A stretch of 64,000 nucleotides of DNA from Nitrospira sp. (GTDB lineage Bacteria; Nitrospirota; Nitrospiria; Nitrospirales; Nitrospiraceae): the NCBI GenBank assembly GCA_024998625.1, contig JACOEL010000023.1, forward strand, positions 1 to 64,000, written 5' to 3'. The notes beneath the pieces are model-generated. The model ran no database searches and was not told where the DNA came from. It saw nothing but the letters and a program-made list of their open reading frames with translations. Made by a program: the position numbers and the translations under genes. Shown piece by piece: positions 38,224 to 45,798 of this stretch (its first letter is position 1; each line of letters opens with the position of its first letter).

Positions 38224-38688
38224 ATGTTTAACGTGATTCTATATCAGCCGGAAATTCCTCCGAACACGGGGAACATCATCCGGCTCTGCGCCAACACCGG
38301 CGCCTCGTTGCACCTGGTCAAGCCGTTGGGCTTTACGCTGGAAGACAAACAATTGCTGCGAGCCGGACTGGATTATCACGAATTCGCCTCGATCACGGTA
38401 CACGAGACGTGGGCGGACTGTCTGGAACGGATGAAGGATCGCCGTATCTTTGCCGTATCCACAAAAGGCCGGCAACGGTACGATCTGGTCCGATATACCG
38501 AAGGCGATGCATTCGTCTTTGGTCCGGAAAGTCGTGGATTGCCGGCGGAGATTCTCGGCAGCGTCCCTGAACAGCAGTGTCTACGCGTACCGATGGTGCC
38601 GGGAAGCCGTAGCCTCAACCTCTCCAACTCGGTGGCGGTGGTGCTCTACGAAGCCTGGCGGCAGGTTGAATTTGGAAATTACGTGTAA
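38224..38688 (+). CDS. trmL: tRNA (cytidine(34)-2'-O)-methyltransferase TrmL
   Basis: TrmL methylates the 2'-O of the wobble C/cmnm5U34 of tRNA-Leu isoacceptors with S-adenosylmethionine. The 154-residue SPOUT protein has motif 1 in PEIPPNTGNIIRLCANTG, motif 2 in FVFGPESRGLP and motif 3 in SRSLNLSNSVAVVLYEAWR, all in the TrmL form. Length is typical. It is the last gene before the accessory island on the opposite strand. Confidence 0.93.
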   Translation: MFNVILYQPEIPPNTGNIIRLCANTGASLHLVKPLGFTLEDKQLLRAGLDYHEFASITVHETWADCLERMKDRRIFAVSTKGRQRYDLVRYTEGDAFVFGPESRGLPAEILGSVPEQQCLRVPMVPGSRSLNLSNSVAVVLYEAWRQVEFGNYV

Positions 38689-38773
38689 CGAAGTGAAGAG
38701 CACATAGCCTATGGCTTACAGACGACAGGCCGCCGCAGAAAAAACAGGACTCCTCTGCTCGTGCTGGCGTCGC

Positions 38774-39961
38774 TCAGGCGCTGGTCTGCGAAAATGGATG
38801 CAGATGGCTCAGGCTGACATGTTTCTGTGCGAAGGCCTCACCGACCCGCTGGATGTCCGCGATGTGTTTCACCGAATCCATCACCTGCACATTTTCCGCT
38901 TGTACGTTGCCGAGACCCAAGGTGTCTAAGCCGGTTTGGCTCACGTCCGGATCGTAGCGCACATAGGTGAACTGTTTCGCTCCGGTCCAGTTGGATGCTT
39001 TTGCGTCCGCCGCAAGCACCATGTCGCCGATTTCACGGTCGATTGATGCGCCGAAACGGCAATCGCCTAACATGCGGCAGGCCATGTCCCAGCCGGCGCA
39101 GGCCGCATTCATTAAGGCCCGCGGGACATTCTTGGCGTGATCTCCTAACCAGAGGTCATCTGCTTGCAGGTTGGGGCGCGCGAAAGCGGCGCAGCCCGTT
39201 CCCACTGAGACGATTAACAGCTTGTCCGTCCCGGTGGACCAGTTGAGCTTATATGGCGCCGCTGTCGCCATCTGAAAGGCGAGGAACGCGGGATTGTTGT
39301 ACGTGGTCACGCCGCCATCGACGAAAATGAATTGATACTCGCTCGGTGTGCCGGGGGCGAAGATCACCACCTCGGGCGGGAAGAAGGTCGGCGCGGCGGT
39401 GCTGGCGCGCACCAGTTGCCACAGCGGCAAGTTCAGATTGCAGTCTTTGCGATCACGCTGGTTGTACTTGGCTTTGGGGTTATTCCAGATCGGCCAGGGG
39501 GAATCCGTGGTGTGGTTGCGCAACACCATCATCAGCAAGGTGCGCAGTCCCGCGTCGCCGAGGGTGGCGGGTGGTGCGCCGTCTGAATAACCCAACGCCC
39601 GGTTGAGTTCGGCGCGTAGTTTGGCGGCCAGCGGTTCATCGTCATAGCTATAGCGTAGCCGCTTGAAGACCGAAGCCTTGTCGAACATTTGTTGTCCGCT
39701 CGAGACATAGAAGGCGCGAATCTTGTCCATGGACATGCCCGCCGAAATGCAGGCGGCGATGATGGCTCCCGTGCTGGTCCCGCAGACGAAATCAAACCAG
39801 TCGCCCAGGACCAATTCCGGTTTTCCAAGTTGTGCGCGGAGGTCGGCCTCCAGCTTGGCGAGAATTTCCGCGCTCATCAGTCCAAGAATCCCACCGCCGT
39901 CACAGGCGAGAATTGTTTTGAGGCCGGAGGGTTCAATGCGGGTTTTCAACCTCTCGCTCAT
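38774..39961 (-). CDS. Patatin-like phospholipase
   Basis: The 395-residue protein has the patatin catalytic dyad: oxyanion hole CDGGGILG at residues 20-27, nucleophile elbow GTSTG at 61-65 (Ser63) and the Asp of VDGG at 215-217. Patatins hydrolyse membrane phospholipids; relatives such as CapV act as membrane-damaging effectors in anti-phage systems. AGGAGG precedes the ATG. It lies 39 bp after a TIR-WD40 gene and ends a three-gene minus-strand operon. No signal peptide or membrane segment, so it acts from the cytoplasm. No cyclic-nucleotide synthase gene is nearby. Confidence 0.9.
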   Translation of the reverse strand: MSERLKTRIEPSGLKTILACDGGGILGLMSAEILAKLEADLRAQLGKPELVLGDWFDFVCGTSTGAIIAACISAGMSMDKIRAFYVSSGQQMFDKASVFKRLRYSYDDEPLAAKLRAELNRALGYSDGAPPATLGDAGLRTLLMMVLRNHTTDSPWPIWNNPKAKYNQRDRKDCNLNLPLWQLVRASTAAPTFFPPEVVIFAPGTPSEYQFIFVDGGVTTYNNPAFLAFQMATAAPYKLNWSTGTDKLLIVSVGTGCAAFARPNLQADDLWLGDHAKNVPRALMNAACAGWDMACRMLGDCRFGASIDREIGDMVLAADAKASNWTGAKQFTYVRYDPDVSQTGLDTLGLGNVQAENVQVMDSVKHIADIQRVGEAFAQKHVSLSHLHPFSQTSA

Positions 39962-40000
39962 GTTGCCTCCTGAAGATAGTCCGTAGAAGTGAATGGCTCG

Positions 40001-41497
40001 CTAGTCCGTTTTATTGTCTTTGCCTGGGGCAATGCTGGGTGACTCTTGTGCCGGCGCATCCGGCGGAATCGGCAAACCTGGGCATTGTTCGCGATACTCA
40101 ATGTCCGGTGAGACCTGTTCGCGCCATTCCTTACGGCTCATGTTACGGGTGAGCTTGGCACAGAGTTCGTTGGGCCAGGCATCGGGTGCTGGCCAGAGTC
40201 GCAGCGTCTTGTCCAAACTACCCGAGACAAGGCGGCGGCCATCAGGGCTGAACGCCACACTCGTCACCCACGAGCCATGGCTGTCCAACGGCTCACCAAT
40301 GGGCTGGCCCGTCTCGCTATTCCAAAGCCGGAGTATCCCGTCCTTACTGCCCGTGACGAGGCGGCGACCGTCCGGGCTGAACGCCATACTCATCACCTCC
40401 GCTTTGGGCCCTTTCAGTGATACGCCGATCGACTGGCCGGTCTCCGCATCCCAGCGCCGCACTGTTCCATCGGCACCGCCGGAGAGGAGATGGGTCCCGT
40501 CCGGGCTGAACGCCACACTCCTCACCCACGCGTTATGCCCCTTCAACGGCTCGCCGATTGGCTGGCCCGTCTGGGCATCCCAGAGCCGTACCGTTCCATC
40601 CCCACTGCCGGAAAGGAAGCGACGGCCGTCCGGGCTGAATCTGACTACTTCAGCCGAAGAGTTGGTTTTGATTATTTTGTTCACTCGCTCTAGCGCAAAT
40701 ACCTCAGTCCACATCGTGTTCTCGATTTCGATATGTGGCGCAATCCGGTGCGCCGCCAGCAGTTTCGACAACCCAAGCACCAACCCCCCTGGACGGGCGC
40801 CGGATAGCATGGTCTGTGCTTCCGTATTCAGTCGCAGCGCTGTGGCGTTTCGGAGTGCGATTTCAAGATGGTTCTTGCTGTCGATCACCCGAAAAGTGGC
40901 AACTGCAAGAGCAATCGCCAGGGCTGCCAGCAACGTAAACACAGTGCGAGTCATCCAGCGCCAGCGCTGGTTTGCCTTCTTCGAATTAGGTGCGGTGGCC
41001 AGTCGATTGACGACGTCATCAGATGCGAGGCCAGCCGAGACGGCCTCGTTTGATTCATTGATCCAAATATTGCCTTGGTGTGCGAGCCACTCCTGAACTC
41101 TTGATGAAAGTTCACCATCTTGCAGCGCTCCTCCAACGTTGATCGGAACAATCGGTCGGTCTCGACGCACCTTGCGGAACTCCTCAACTTCGGTTCGAAC
41201 CCAGCGGGGCTCTTCCAATGTTTCGCGGTTGGCGATGACGACCAGTGCATGAGAACGGAGGAGGGCTTGGTGTAGCGTGCTGTCGAGTTGATTGCCGACC
41301 GGGGCCTCGTCCTCACTGAAAAAGACCGTATAGTCAGCTTCGCGAAGGCGGCGAGTGAGATCAGACGCATAACTGCGAGTTCCCCGTGGCGGCGGGCCGA
41401 GAGCGAATGAAATGAAGATATCGTAGCCAAATAACCGCGCTGCATAGCTGCGCTTGGGCGCTGCTGACCTGGGAGTGGCTTCCACTGAATTCAGCAT
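40001..41497 (-). CDS. TIR-transmembrane-WD40 protein
   Basis: From the ATG at 41497 the protein is 498 residues. A TIR domain covers about residues 24-140: DIFISFALG, FFSEDEAPVGNQL and the helix RWVRTEVEEF, where Glu103 sits at the NADase catalytic position. A single membrane segment follows (about 185-204), then a helical linker (LEIALRNATALRLNTEA, LGLSKLLAAHRI) like that of STAND-type proteins, then four WD40 repeats (about 284-434) and a C-terminal tail. TIR domains cleave NAD or make signalling nucleotides in bacterial immunity. The frame is open to 41674 but that part lies inside the upstream gene, whose stop is 14 bp before this ATG. Confidence 0.85.
   Translation of the reverse strand: MLNSVEATPRSAAPKRSYAARLFGYDIFISFALGPPPRGTRSYASDLTRRLREADYTVFFSEDEAPVGNQLDSTLHQALLRSHALVVIANRETLEEPRWVRTEVEEFRKVRRDRPIVPINVGGALQDGELSSRVQEWLAHQGNIWINESNEAVSAGLASDDVVNRLATAPNSKKANQRWRWMTRTVFTLLAALAIALAVATFRVIDSKNHLEIALRNATALRLNTEAQTMLSGARPGGLVLGLSKLLAAHRIAPHIEIENTMWTEVFALERVNKIIKTNSSAEVVRFSPDGRRFLSGSGDGTVRLWDAQTGQPIGEPLKGHNAWVRSVAFSPDGTHLLSGGADGTVRRWDAETGQSIGVSLKGPKAEVMSMAFSPDGRRLVTGSKDGILRLWNSETGQPIGEPLDSHGSWVTSVAFSPDGRRLVSGSLDKTLRLWPAPDAWPNELCAKLTRNMSRKEWREQVSPDIEYREQCPGLPIPPDAPAQESPSIAPGKDNKTD
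40140..40660 (-). repeat. Four 129-bp DNA repeats encoding WD40 blades
   Basis: The string GGGCTGAA or a close variant recurs at 40245, 40374, 40503 and 40632, an exact 129-base (43-codon) period, with long near-identical stretches around it. It is coding repeat sequence, not a CRISPR array. The high similarity suggests recent duplication or gene conversion. Confidence 0.75.
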
Positions 41498-41511
41498 AGG
41501 AACAATGTGGT

Positions 41512-43494
41512 CTACAGACTCCTGCTGTCGATCCACGCGACTCTTCCTGTTCTCCGCTTCACTTCTTCGTACATGTGGGCCGTGCCGCCCGGTCCGTCGC
41601 CGCCGCCTCCGTCCCACAAGCAAATGAACCGCACTTTGTTGATGCCGTAGGATAGGGCGGTGTAGAGCAGCCACCGATTGCAGCGTTCGAATGGGTTCAC
41701 ACCATTGGGCAACGGGCCGAGTTCGTCCGGCATGATGCGAGGTTCGTCCTTCAGGCCTGATTTGAGGCGGTAGAACCGCTCACGCCACTTGTCACCGTCG
41801 GCAGAGGGAAGGATCGAGCGCTGGATGAATTCCGGCTCCGGGAGCGGCAGCAACAGTTGCAGCCGTACATTTCGTTGCCGGCAGGCTTCGAGAAACAGCA
41901 AATCCCCTCCGCTGGCCCCCTGGGTGAGCGCGAGGTCCTCCGGTCCGGCGCCCAGTTGATCCAACGCCGAGGCGATGTTCTGCGCCGCGACCGATTCCTT
42001 CTCGGCCGGGAACCGCTCGCTGGGGCGGCCCGGCGCGTCGATCATGTGGCCGCTGAAGAGGATCACCTGTCGCGGTTGCCAGTCTTCGGGCTTCTGAAGT
42101 TTCTGCAAGGCGCGGTCGAAGGTCGCGGTGCCGGCCTCGACGTTCTTCGGCCTGAAGCCTAAATCCTTGAGCAACTGGAGTTGGGCGCGACCGGAGTTGA
42201 GCGCAAACCAGTCCTTGTCATTTTTTGCCAGGGCTTCCTTGTACGCGGCCTGTGCCGCCTCCGGCGTACCGACCAGCACCTCTAGATCGCCCAGCGTCAT
42301 GTTGGACCAGAAGCGCTGCTGTTCATCCGGCTCGGACTCCGCTGCAAATCGGATGGCTCCGGCCATGGTGTCCATTTCACCGTCGTAGCGTGGATCTTTG
42401 ATGATGAGGTGGCGATGGAGGTGCATCAAGGTGAGCGCGTTGATGCCGGAGTAGTAATGACCGGGGTTGCGGCGGAAGGCGGTCGTGTAGCTGTCGATGG
42501 CGGCGCGTAGCAGGGCCTCTTCGTAGGCCGCTTCGTCTTGCATCTGTTCCGGGCTGTTGCCGGCGCGGCGCCAGGCGATGACCCAAGCATCCTTATCGAC
42601 GCGGCCGAGCAAGGCCCAGGTTTCCGGGTCATGCGGATACAACTCCAAGATTTTTCGGTAGTGCGCCCGCGCGCGGTCCATCGAATGGCCTGGGCGGCCG
42701 GCCAAGGCGAGCCGCTGCAAACAGATGCCCTGCTCGCGCAGACCCTTGAGATTGTGCGGTTCGACCGCCAGGCCTCGTTCGAGCTGTTCCAAGGCAAAGC
42801 CGAAGCGTTCTGCCTTGCGCAAGGCCTCGCCGGCCTTGATCCAGGCCTCGGCTCGAAACGCCGCGATCGGCGCCTCGTCCGCAAGGACCAGGACATCACC
42901 GATGTGCCCCGTTTTTCGCGCCAAGGCGATGCGGCTTTCCCATGTCTCATGCTGTTGCCAGAATTCCCGCACGTCGCCGATGCGAAGCGATTTCCAATCT
43001 GGCTCCTGGAGATTCGGCATCAATTGATAGACCGGACTCACCTTGCGGCCGTGCCACGACTCCATCGTCGCTGTGACCATGTCTGCAAGGTTCTTCTTGT
43101 CCAGCTTCAGGGCCGCAGGATCCGGTCCCCTGTTTGTGATGCTGTAGCGGAGCTTCCGATCGGTATAGAGGTCGAAGGCGGCGGGCACTCGCCCGCCGCA
43201 GGTCAAGACGACGCCGCGGGCGCGCAGCGCATGGCGCACGCCCAGTTCGTACCAGACGTTGGGATTATCCAGGGTGAGGTCCGCCACGACGAGGTCGGCG
43301 ATGAGGAGTTCCTGGAACATGTCGGTGCGGATATCGCCGGCCTGTACCTCTTCATCCGCACGAAATACGTCCAAGCCAGCGGCCTCCAGTGCCGGCTTGA
43401 TCAACTCAACATAGACACGATTAAAATCGATCTCGTTGCCTTGGTTGTCGCGCTTCACGCCGAACGGCATGGCGACAAAGGCATGTGGTTTCAT
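41512..43494 (-). CDS. Deoxyribosyltransferase-like / DUF4071 (TRAFs-binding) / SLOG-like protein
   Basis: The 660-residue protein has three parts. Residues 1-100 resemble nucleoside 2-deoxyribosyltransferase/TIR-like folds: FVAMPFG, then DLTLDNPNVWYELG with Glu83 in the catalytic position. Residues about 170-470 are TPR-like helices with the DUF4071 (MAP3K TRAFs-binding) signature LLGRVDKDAW, then FRRNPGHYYSGINALTL. Residues 476-660 begin VILFSGHMIDAPGR and contain TQGASGGDLLFLEAC and LLPLPEPEFI, a SLOG-type nucleotide-binding pattern. It is the first gene of a probable operon with the TIR-WD40 and patatin genes. I infer a sensor or nucleotide-signalling role; no experimental function is known to me. 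Confidence 0.75.
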   Translation of the reverse strand: MKPHAFVAMPFGVKRDNQGNEIDFNRVYVELIKPALEAAGLDVFRADEEVQAGDIRTDMFQELLIADLVVADLTLDNPNVWYELGVRHALRARGVVLTCGGRVPAAFDLYTDRKLRYSITNRGPDPAALKLDKKNLADMVTATMESWHGRKVSPVYQLMPNLQEPDWKSLRIGDVREFWQQHETWESRIALARKTGHIGDVLVLADEAPIAAFRAEAWIKAGEALRKAERFGFALEQLERGLAVEPHNLKGLREQGICLQRLALAGRPGHSMDRARAHYRKILELYPHDPETWALLGRVDKDAWVIAWRRAGNSPEQMQDEAAYEEALLRAAIDSYTTAFRRNPGHYYSGINALTLMHLHRHLIIKDPRYDGEMDTMAGAIRFAAESEPDEQQRFWSNMTLGDLEVLVGTPEAAQAAYKEALAKNDKDWFALNSGRAQLQLLKDLGFRPKNVEAGTATFDRALQKLQKPEDWQPRQVILFSGHMIDAPGRPSERFPAEKESVAAQNIASALDQLGAGPEDLALTQGASGGDLLFLEACRQRNVRLQLLLPLPEPEFIQRSILPSADGDKWRERFYRLKSGLKDEPRIMPDELGPLPNGVNPFERCNRWLLYTALSYGINKVRFICLWDGGGGDGPGGTAHMYEEVKRRTGRVAWIDSRSL

Positions 43495-43914
43495 GCGAGT
43501 CTCCGATTGGGAGTACGATGGCCTGCCGATTCGAGTTTCTCGTGTGACGGCCTGTGTACTATGGAGCGGCTAGGAACGCATCATACTCCGTTTGTAACCC
43601 GCTGAACATTGCGATGAGCCGGCCGAGCTGCTGTGCTTCGATTCCACCATGTCGAAGTCGAAACGCCAGGATCGCAAGCCGCAGTCAAGGCTCCACCGCA
43701 TCAATTCAACAGCAAATGCTGTACCGGGAAATGCGGTGAGCGGTCTTTGCTTATTTTGTGCAGTGATGCGAAATGCATGTATTTGTGGAGAATGGGAGCA
43801 TGACGGAATGCAGTATCTGAAAAACACGGCGCTGTTATCAAAAGAGATACAGCGGATCACTTCTGCAATTCACCGACCGGCGCGGGCCTGTCCCCTGAGG
43901 GCGGCTCTATGCAA
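43495..43914. other. Intergenic stretch with a possible gene remnant
   Basis: About 420 bp between the island's first gene and kup. No intact gene is convincing. On the minus strand, about 41 coding-like codons (LRLAILAFRLRHGGIEAQ and on to a stop near 43560) begin straight after a TGA, which may be the decayed tail of a gene. The promoter of the minus-strand operon should lie in the part next to 43494, but I see no clear boxes. Confidence 0.4.
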
Positions 43915-45798
43915 TCAAATCTCCAGCACCAGCCCGATTTCAATCACCTGTTCCGCCGGTAGGTGGAAATAGGAACTGGCCCTCTGAGTATTTCGTGACA
44001 GGAAGACGAATATTTTCTCCCGCCAGATTGCCATCCCCGGTTTCGGCGTCGCCAAAAAGGTCAGTCTGCTCAGGAAGAACGTCGTCTCATCGACAGGGAG
44101 GGGATGGCCGCGGGCTGCGAGGTGGGTGAGTACACGTGGGATGTCCGGCGTTTCCATGAATCCGCATCTTGCGACGACTTGAAACAGGTTCTCCCGGATG
44201 GTGGTGATCTCCAACGGGCCTCCCGACGGAACAAACGGCACAGGCTCTGTGCGGACCGTGAGCAGATAGACCTGCTCGTGGAGAGATTTATTATGCCTGA
44301 CATTTTGCAGCAAGGCGGGCGGGGTGATGTCGGGATGTTGCGATAAAAATACGGCGCGTCCGGCGGTTCTGCATTGCACCTGCGACAAGACTTCCTGGAC
44401 GAACTGAACGAGGGGAGGAAACTGCTCGCGCAAGTGGTCCGCCACAATCGCGCGTCCTCGCGCCCAGGTACTCATGACGGTGAATAGGGCCGCGCCGAGC
44501 AGCAGCGGGAACCATCCGCCATGGGAAATTTTTTGGGCATTTGCGAGAAAGAAGGCGAGATCGATGAGCAGGAATACCCCGACGGCCATGGCGGCCGGTA
44601 GCGGGTTCCATTGCCAATGGGCTTGGGCCACGCGGTACATCAGGAGCGTCGTGATGATCATGGAGCCCGAGACGGCGATGCCATAGGCCGCGGCCAGGTT
44701 GCTGGACGATCCGAACGAGAGGATCAGACCGACGGTCCCGATGAACATCAACCAGTTCAATAGGCCGAAATAGATTTGGCCATGTTGCTCGGCGGACGTG
44801 TGGGTGACCCGCAACGGCGGCAGATAGCCCAGTTGAACGGCTTGTAAGGTCAACGAGAAGGCTCCGGACAGCATGGCTTGCGATGCGATGATGGTGGCCA
44901 TGGTCGCCAGCGCGATCAAGGGGTACAGCATCCAGTCGGGGGCCAGGAAGTAAAAGGGATTAACCAGAGCCGTTGGGGTTCGCATGAGGAGTGCGCCCTG
45001 GCCGAAGTACTGGAGTAAGAGGGCGGGTAGGGCCACAGCAAACCAGCCGAGTTGGATCGGTCGGCGTCCAAAGTGGCCCATGTCGGCATACAAAGCTTCG
45101 GCCCCCGTGAGGACCAGAAACACACTGCCCAGCACCAGGATGCCGACTCCTGCATGGTGAATCAAAAATTGGATCGCATAGAGCGGATTGGCGGCACGCA
45201 GAACCTCCGGGGTTTGGAACAAACTGTGGAGCCCGAGCAGGGCCATCGTGACAAACCAGAGCAGCATGACGGGGCCGAAGATGTTCCCGATCGTCCCGGA
45301 GCCACGGCGCTGGATCATAAACAGCAAGGCGACCAGCGTGACGGTCAGAGGCAGGATGTAGGGGGTGAACAGATCGGTGGTCAGCGTCAGCCCTTCGACC
45401 GCGCTGAGGACCGAAATGGCCGGTGTAATGATGCCGTCGCTATAGAGAAAGGCCACGCCGATCAAGCCGAGTGTGACGACAACGTTGAGTCCTTTGCGGA
45501 GATCGACCGGGCGGGACCGCTGGCTGGGCGCCATGAGTGCCAGCATGCCGCCTTCGCCCTCGTTGTCGGCTTTCATCACGAATAACAGATATTTTACGGT
45601 GACGACGAGTACGAGCGACCACACGATCATGGACAGGATCCCCAGCACGTTGTCGGGAGTGGCCGACAGGCCATGCGATTCGTGAAAACATTCGCGCAGG
45701 GCATACAGCGGGCTGGTTCCGATGTCGCCATAGACCACGCCCATGGCGGCCACGGTGAGGGAGACGGAAGAAGATTGGTTGTTGAGATGCTTCGGCAT
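43915..45798 (-). CDS. kup: Low-affinity potassium transporter Kup
   Basis: Kup is a proton-coupled K+ uptake permease of the inner membrane. The 627-residue protein starts with the family signature VYGDIGTSPLYALRECF, followed by about twelve membrane segments (for example SDGIITPAISVLSAVEGL) and a hydrophilic C-terminal domain of about 170 residues ending IEIGLVLEI. Length and motifs are those of intact Kup. It is divergent from tex. Confidence 0.95.
   Translation of the reverse strand: MPKHLNNQSSSVSLTVAAMGVVYGDIGTSPLYALRECFHESHGLSATPDNVLGILSMIVWSLVLVVTVKYLLFVMKADNEGEGGMLALMAPSQRSRPVDLRKGLNVVVTLGLIGVAFLYSDGIITPAISVLSAVEGLTLTTDLFTPYILPLTVTLVALLFMIQRRGSGTIGNIFGPVMLLWFVTMALLGLHSLFQTPEVLRAANPLYAIQFLIHHAGVGILVLGSVFLVLTGAEALYADMGHFGRRPIQLGWFAVALPALLLQYFGQGALLMRTPTALVNPFYFLAPDWMLYPLIALATMATIIASQAMLSGAFSLTLQAVQLGYLPPLRVTHTSAEQHGQIYFGLLNWLMFIGTVGLILSFGSSSNLAAAYGIAVSGSMIITTLLMYRVAQAHWQWNPLPAAMAVGVFLLIDLAFFLANAQKISHGGWFPLLLGAALFTVMSTWARGRAIVADHLREQFPPLVQFVQEVLSQVQCRTAGRAVFLSQHPDITPPALLQNVRHNKSLHEQVYLLTVRTEPVPFVPSGGPLEITTIRENLFQVVARCGFMETPDIPRVLTHLAARGHPLPVDETTFFLSRLTFLATPKPGMAIWREKIFVFLSRNTQRASSYFHLPAEQVIEIGLVLEI

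What the first reader, a model, noticed from the sequence alone, without database searches (positions are those of the whole stretch)
41512..43494. Protein with two nucleotide-type domains at either end of a TPR/DUF4071 core
The N-terminal FVAMPFG...WYELG module and C-terminal FSGH...GASGGDLLF module both resemble nucleotide or NAD-handling folds, joined by a DUF4071 core better known from eukaryotic MAP3K proteins. This could make or sense a nucleotide signal for the two downstream effectors.
Basis: partly seen in the sequence, partly recalled or inferred. Interest (0 to 1): 0.55.

Follow-up and report, generated by a model that had tools for sequence, protein, structure and literature searches.

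The report
Bacterial ASK1-like NAD-signalling switch protein
This gene encodes a probable bacterial immune switch with a nucleotide-cutting-type fold at one end, a nucleotide-binding-type fold at the other and a middle built like the human cell-death kinase ASK1, sitting beside swappable cell-killing effector genes; what signal it makes or senses is still unproven.

Summary
The 660-aa minus-strand ORF has three parts. Residues 1-145 have the DNPH1 / deoxyribosyltransferase (DrHyd) fold, with the catalytic-type E83 in 62 of 62 aligned homologues. The core is a TPR-S domain (Pfam PF20308, E=3e-16) whose best structural row is the ASK1 central region (Z 16.0, tied with Rap proteins). The C-terminus has a YpsA-like SLOG fold (Z 15.3) but no Pfam match.

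It opens a three-gene operon with a TIR-WD40 protein and a patatin phospholipase. Patatin, caspase, CHAT, TIR, SIR2 or STAND genes follow on the same strand in 56 of 73 usable loci of 80. In relatives the same chromosomal site is empty (6 regions) or holds the conserved gene with different modules.

Best reading: a TPR-S-type NAD/nucleotide-signalling conflict system. Bacterial roots of the ASK signalosome were proposed in 2020 (paper not held; cited in PMC8195603). Signal, ligand and phage defence are untested. A variant of a predicted kind.

The parts
41512..43494 (-). TPR-S regulator gene, 660 aa (DrHyd - TPR-S - SLOG)
43060..43494 (-). N-terminal DrHyd (DNPH1/NDT-type) domain, residues 1-145; invariant K14, R45, D47, D67, D72, D76, N77, N79, W81, Y82, E83
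   Evidence: VIA-align Z 14.6, rmsd 2.2 over 124 residues to DNPH1; conservation 62 of 62
42082..42954 (-). TPR / TPR-S superhelix, about residues 181-471 (Pfam TPR-S hit at residues 233-357)
   Evidence: best structural row ASK1 central region 5ulm, Z 16.0
41515..42075 (-). C-terminal SLOG (YpsA-like) domain, residues 474-660
   Evidence: VIA-align Z 15.3, rmsd 3.4 over 158 residues to YpsA 2nx2; no Pfam match at E<=0.5
40001..41497 (-). TIR - probable transmembrane helix (read by eye) - WD40 protein, 498 aa; starts 14 nt after the regulator's stop
   Evidence: TIR_2 E=4.9e-10 over cut-off; WD40 E=3.4e-46; gap
38774..39961 (-). patatin-like phospholipase, 395 aa, with GTSTG and DGG motifs; 39 nt after the TIR-WD40 stop
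   Evidence: Patatin E=2.9e-22; CBASS_lipase NF041079 E=6.7e-31 but under cut-off; nearest solved relatives patatin-17 and CapV-type phospholipases; gap
38224..38688 (+). flank: TrmL-type RNA methyltransferase (name from recall), one edge of the insertion site
43915..45798 (-). flank: KUP-type K+ transporter, other edge of the insertion site
   Evidence: the neighbouring homologue in L007 is Pfam K_trans

Best explanation
A TPR-S-type conflict (probably anti-phage) system. The 660-aa protein is the conserved regulator. Its N-terminal DrHyd domain is probably an N-glycosidase acting on NAD+ or another nucleotide through E83. Its C-terminal SLOG domain probably binds a nucleotide product as a threshold sensor. 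The TPR-S superhelix couples ligand binding to the partner effector. On infection, the TIR arm (membrane TIR-WD40 in the window; SIR2-TIR or TIR-STAND elsewhere) and/or the DrHyd domain makes the signal; the switch then turns on the patatin lipase, which damages the membrane and stops the infected cell. Shown here: the three domains and their conserved residues, the operon layout, the recurrent effector context, and the site that is empty or differently filled in relatives. Inferred: catalysis, ligand, order of steps, phage as trigger.
For: Folds. TPR-S profile 62 of 62 members. A PADLOC TIR-effector model matches 62 of 62 members at E<=0.1, in the window protein over residues 24-115. [quoted passage not shown] The N-terminal profile matches proteins that themselves hit PF05014 weakly (hhalign prob 98.9, E 1.9e-17). 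Effector-type genes downstream on the same strand in 56 of 73 loci; in 57 loci with both flanks, 43 have one within 3 kb downstream and 6 upstream, either strand. Pfam on the nearest gene: patatin 14 of 57 and caspase 7 of 57 downstream; neither is among the 25 commonest families upstream. Patchy: 19 of 61 genomes searched match, some by one domain only. Insertion site empty in 6 regions, filled with different modules in others. Weaker relatives on plasmids next to TIR, DUF4231 or patatin genes.
Against: No activity, ligand or defence phenotype was tested. Pfam does not call Nuc_deoxyrib_tr (P0001 at E<=5; N-terminus alone at E<=0.5) or any SLOG family. The C-terminal profile has no similarity to a roughly assembled LDcluster4 SLOG set, so SLOG rests on structure alone. 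In 17 of 73 loci no labelled effector follows on the same strand. The DNPH1 residue mutated in the solved D80A/D80N entries has no exact counterpart; D58 is one position off in the HMMER alignment. No full-length homologue in viral contigs (1 distant N-terminal hit). GC content is flat, so there is no sign of recent import by composition.
Confidence: 0.5

Rival explanations
1. DrHyd is not a signal maker but the toxic arm: on triggering it depletes NAD+ or nucleotides directly, and the SLOG domain only senses depletion or a product to release it. Patatin and TIR are parallel killing arms.
For: DrHyd domains are described as NADase effectors in conflict systems; E83 and neighbours invariant; no labelled effector gene on the same strand in 17 of 73 loci.
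Against: The usual layout keeps a dedicated effector gene beside it (56 of 73), which a self-sufficient effector would not need.
Confidence: 0.2
2. Both ends are non-catalytic sensors: DrHyd and SLOG bind a nucleotide made by the TIR/SIR2 partner, and the TPR protein is a pure adaptor.
For: Inactive members of this class are described as sensors. TIR, SIR2-TIR or STAND-TIR modules are common partners.
Against: 21 of 73 loci show patatin as the only labelled partner, leaving no other obvious signal enzyme; the catalytic-type Glu is invariant, which a pure sensor would not need.
Confidence: 0.2
3. A housekeeping or stress-response regulator of nucleotide or lipid metabolism, not a defence gene.
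For: No phage-challenge data; strong purifying selection; chromosomal in the genomes examined at the KUP site.
Against: Patchy within the genus, empty insertion sites, swapped modules and partners of toxic classes.
Confidence: 0.1

Closest known systems
TPR-S proteins of predicted prokaryotic immune systems (Burroughs and Aravind 2020, J Bacteriol e00365-20; text not held, content recalled; cited in PMC8195603 section 20)
   Same: TPR-S core over the Pfam cut-off; partners of nucleotide-signalling and effector classes
   Different: Whether this DrHyd-TPR-S-SLOG order with swapped modules at one site was described there could not be checked
Animal ASK1 (MAP3K5) N-terminal half
   Same: TPR core: best structural row 5ulm Z 16.0; 8qgy aligns over model residues 7-468, Z 14.5 but rmsd 12.1
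   Different: No kinase, no PH domain; SLOG instead. ASK1's N-terminal domain is described as thioredoxin-fold-like in PMC10972558 (passages) and is not in the 50 rows for the N-terminal model
DNPH1 / nucleoside 2-deoxyribosyltransferase / MilB
   Same: Fold (Z 12-14.6) and the YELG-type Glu
   Different: 15-23% identity in the structural rows; Pfam Nuc_deoxyrib_tr not matched; fused to TPR and SLOG
Thoeris (TIR signal, SLOG sensor, SIR2 effector)
   Same: TIR, SLOG and, in some loci, SIR2 in one neighbourhood
   Different: SLOG is on the TPR-S protein, SIR2 is fused to TIR, and a lipase is the commonest labelled partner
CBASS with CapV-type phospholipase
   Same: Patatin related to CapV
   Different: No cyclase matched among the three proteins; patatin under the CBASS_lipase cut-off

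Membership tests
TPR-S (PF20308) | profile score over the curated cut-off | tested here: met
   60.3 bits against 27.6; 62 of 62 members at E<=0.1
MAP3K_TRAF_bd / DUF4071 (PF13281) | profile score over the curated cut-off | tested here: not met
   20.7 bits against 24.1; 60 of 62 relatives match at E<=0.1; a divergent neighbour in L023 is over it with 35.9
ASK1 N-terminal regulatory architecture | N-terminal DrHyd-like domain plus ASK-type TPR in one chain | tested here: inconclusive
   5ulm Z 16.0 tied with Rap; 8qgy joint alignment has rmsd 12.1
DrHyd (DNPH1/NDT superfamily) | fold | tested here: met
   DNPH1 Z 14.6, rmsd 2.2, 124 aligned; NDT Z 13.1; TIR-1 Z 12.2. Foldseek ranks TIR-STING first
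DrHyd (DNPH1/NDT superfamily) | catalytic Glu in the helix after strand 3 | tested here: met
   E83 62 of 62, aligned to the YELG Glu of Rcl/DNPH1, profile E 0.16
Nuc_deoxyrib_tr (PF05014) | profile match | tested here: not met
   no hit for P0001 at E<=5 or its N-terminus at E<=0.5; linked only through intermediates
TIR (N-terminal domain) | TIR_2 profile over cut-off | tested here: not met
   15.4 bits against 28; 9 of 62 members at E<=0.1
SLOG | fold | tested here: met
   YpsA Z 15.3, rmsd 3.4, 158 aligned of 178; one solved structure only
SLOG | sequence profile | tested here: not met
   no Pfam family at E<=0.5; no similarity to the LDcluster4 set, which held some wrong-frame rows
CBASS | CD-NTase in the operon | tested here: not met
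   three genes scanned, no cyclase hit
Thoeris | ThsB TIR with ThsA (SIR2/TM-SLOG) | tested here: not met
   ThsB_TIR 19.8 bits against 21.2; no ThsA hit
anti-phage defence system | protects against phage | not testable with these tools
   needs a plaque assay

The most novel reading that the evidence does not exclude
A single protein that both makes (DrHyd) and reads (SLOG) its own NAD-derived signal across an ASK-type TPR scaffold, used as a conserved hub into which patatin, caspase-CHAT, SIR2-TIR-STAND or TIR-WD40 modules are plugged; this DrHyd-TPR half would be a living relative of what became the stress-sensing half of animal ASK kinases, implying that ASK1's thioredoxin-binding region descends from a nucleotide-cutting enzyme.
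Probability: 0.25. Interest if true: 0.75.

Novelty: new variant of a known kind. Interest (0 to 1): 0.5.

Why it matters
It gives a compact, highly conserved test case for a predicted but, as far as the papers searched here show, unassayed class: TPR-S switches and the nucleotide they read. Because the core is shared with ASK1, finding the bacterial ligand would make it testable whether animal stress-kinase control began as a nucleotide-sensing immune switch. The insertion site, with closely related regulators and different modules, is a natural swap experiment.

Tried and rejected
Whole-model Foldseek was filled by unrelated TPR proteins, so VIA-align and an N-terminal model were used. The PDB sequence profile of the C-terminal domain gave only chance-looking hits. 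phmmer of the L023 paralogue against PDB did not find ASK1. ASK1 does not appear among the 50 rows for the N-terminal model, which does not exclude it. A first hhalign set took wrong frames; the corrected one still holds three LDcluster4 rows that look wrong-frame (L136, L141, L143), so its negative is weak. The promoter and terminator scan was at or below chance. Looking for a defence filling at the same site in G003 found ATP-grasp, DUF169, radical-SAM and GDSL genes; G020 has ORFs of similar size. The 39:2 flank contrast used seeds picked mostly from downstream genes and related loci, so its p-value is not quoted as proof; searches are the fairer check. Literature searches for TPR-S, DRHyd, ASK signalosome, PF20308, PF13281 and DUF4071 listed no paper that I recognised as an assay of a TPR-S system.

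Full report
Observation. The ORF at 41512-43494 (minus) is real: 660 aa, TPR-S PF20308 at E=3e-16, homologues over nearly the whole length in public genomes (80 loci kept, best-segment identity 52-91%) and dN/dS 0.07-0.24 over its parts in seven comparisons. The alignment A1 used the window protein and 61 of the 80 loci; these form 48 clusters at 80% identity.

Anatomy. AlphaFold2 gives mean pLDDT 88 for the whole protein and 83 for residues 1-150. Residues 1-145 match DNPH1 (Z 14.6, rmsd 2.2, 124 aligned), 2-deoxyribosyltransferases (Z about 13) and, less well, TIR domains (TIR-1 Z 12.2); Foldseek by itself ranks a TIR-STING structure first. A profile of the region picks Rcl/DNPH1 as best of the PDB sequences, though only at E 0.16. 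[quoted passage not shown] Residues 181-471 match the ASK1 central region best (Z 16.0), but Rap proteins are tied at 15.6, so the ASK link rests more on the profiles: TPR-S 62 of 62, MAP3K_TRAF_bd 60 of 62 at E<=0.1. Residues 474-660 match YpsA, a SLOG protein (Z 15.3, 158 aligned). Pfam has no family for this part, and G482, D486, R490, R494, G529-G530, R573, R604, N606 are invariant.

Operon and neighbours. In the window a TIR-WD40 gene starts 14 nt after the regulator and a patatin gene 39 nt after that (domains). Over the 73 loci with at least 1 kb beyond the regulator, 56 have a labelled partner on the same strand within 6 kb: patatin alone 21; patatin with TIR 6; patatin with STAND 3; patatin with SIR2, STAND and TIR 2; SIR2, STAND and TIR without patatin 1; various caspase, CHAT and hydrolase sets; 17 have none. 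Pfam on the nearest gene on each side of 57 loci gives patatin 14, TIR_2 9, caspase 7, TPR-S 7, CHAT 5 downstream, against TIR_2 4 and CHAT 3 upstream, where patatin and caspase are not among the 25 commonest families.

Insertion site. Of 17 regions fetched from 16 related genomes, TrmL and KUP are direct neighbours in six (L099, L103, L104, L105, L107, L109), while in the window and in G015, G022 and G005 the cassette lies between them; in G024 it lies beside KUP, and in G001, G007 and G004, where one search found no KUP, it lies between TrmL and Tex. Two regions hold unrelated metabolic-type genes or ORFs there, one is rearranged (L102) and one genome, G021, has its copy elsewhere (L112). 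The regulators are 79-91% identical to the window's, while the middle module is TIR-WD40 (window), TIR-nSTAND1-TPR (G022), a TIR protein plus a STAND-like protein (G015), SIR2-TIR plus nSTAND1 (G024, G001, G007, G004), or nothing before patatin plus a TIR protein (G005). This is the strongest sign of a modular conflict cassette.

Mobility. The gene is patchy: 19 of 61 genomes searched match, the window's own included. Plasmid relatives are partial (69 records, none covering 80% of the query); a Rhizobium plasmid carries the SLOG-type part as its own gene, 12 bp before a TPR-S gene, with DUF4231, patatin and DUF4071 genes nearby.

Literature. I saw passages of PMC9503650 and its section 15, passages of PMC8195603, PMC7159879 and PMC10972558. 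PMC8195603 states that components of the ASK signalosome originate in bacterial conflict systems, citing Burroughs and Aravind 2020 among others. That paper is not held; that it names TPR-S as a likely reader of NAD-derived signals, and that Pfam has a DRHyd-ASK family, is recalled. ASK1's own paper calls its N-terminal domain thioredoxin-fold-like.

Conclusion. Domain anatomy about 0.9; a conflict system about 0.75; the specific make-and-read mechanism about 0.5. The finding is sound and mostly anticipated by published prediction; what is added here is the three-domain layout, the invariant sites and the swap of modules at one site.

Noticed in passing
L023:8496-9773 (-); also L079: A second, divergent TPR-S gene (425 aa, MAP3K_TRAF_bd over cut-off) without the SLOG part, on the opposite strand beside the main one, with its own patatin.
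   Followed up: partly
L036:2261-7999, L078:1-5940: Giant CHAT / alpha-beta hydrolase proteins that carry a TPR-S-like stretch themselves (under the cut-off in L078), next to the TPR-S gene.
   Followed up: partly
L117:5031-6491 (CP050566): SLOG-type part as a stand-alone gene 12 bp before a TPR-S gene on a Rhizobium plasmid: a natural split version.
   Followed up: partly
window 38689-43914 and the same site in related genomes: TrmL-KUP gap is an insertion spot: empty in six fetched regions, other genes in two.
   Followed up: yes
L009:1487-2059: DUF4231 / SLATT_3 two-TM gene directly upstream of the regulator; the same gene cluster appears in three other loci.
   Followed up: no
L120 (9.9 kb Acinetobacter plasmid): A TPR-type relative among three TIR-domain genes on a very small plasmid.
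   Followed up: no
L127, L129, L131: Proteins (162-255 aa) in related genomes that resemble the N-terminal domain and weakly match Nuc_deoxyrib_tr.
   Followed up: partly
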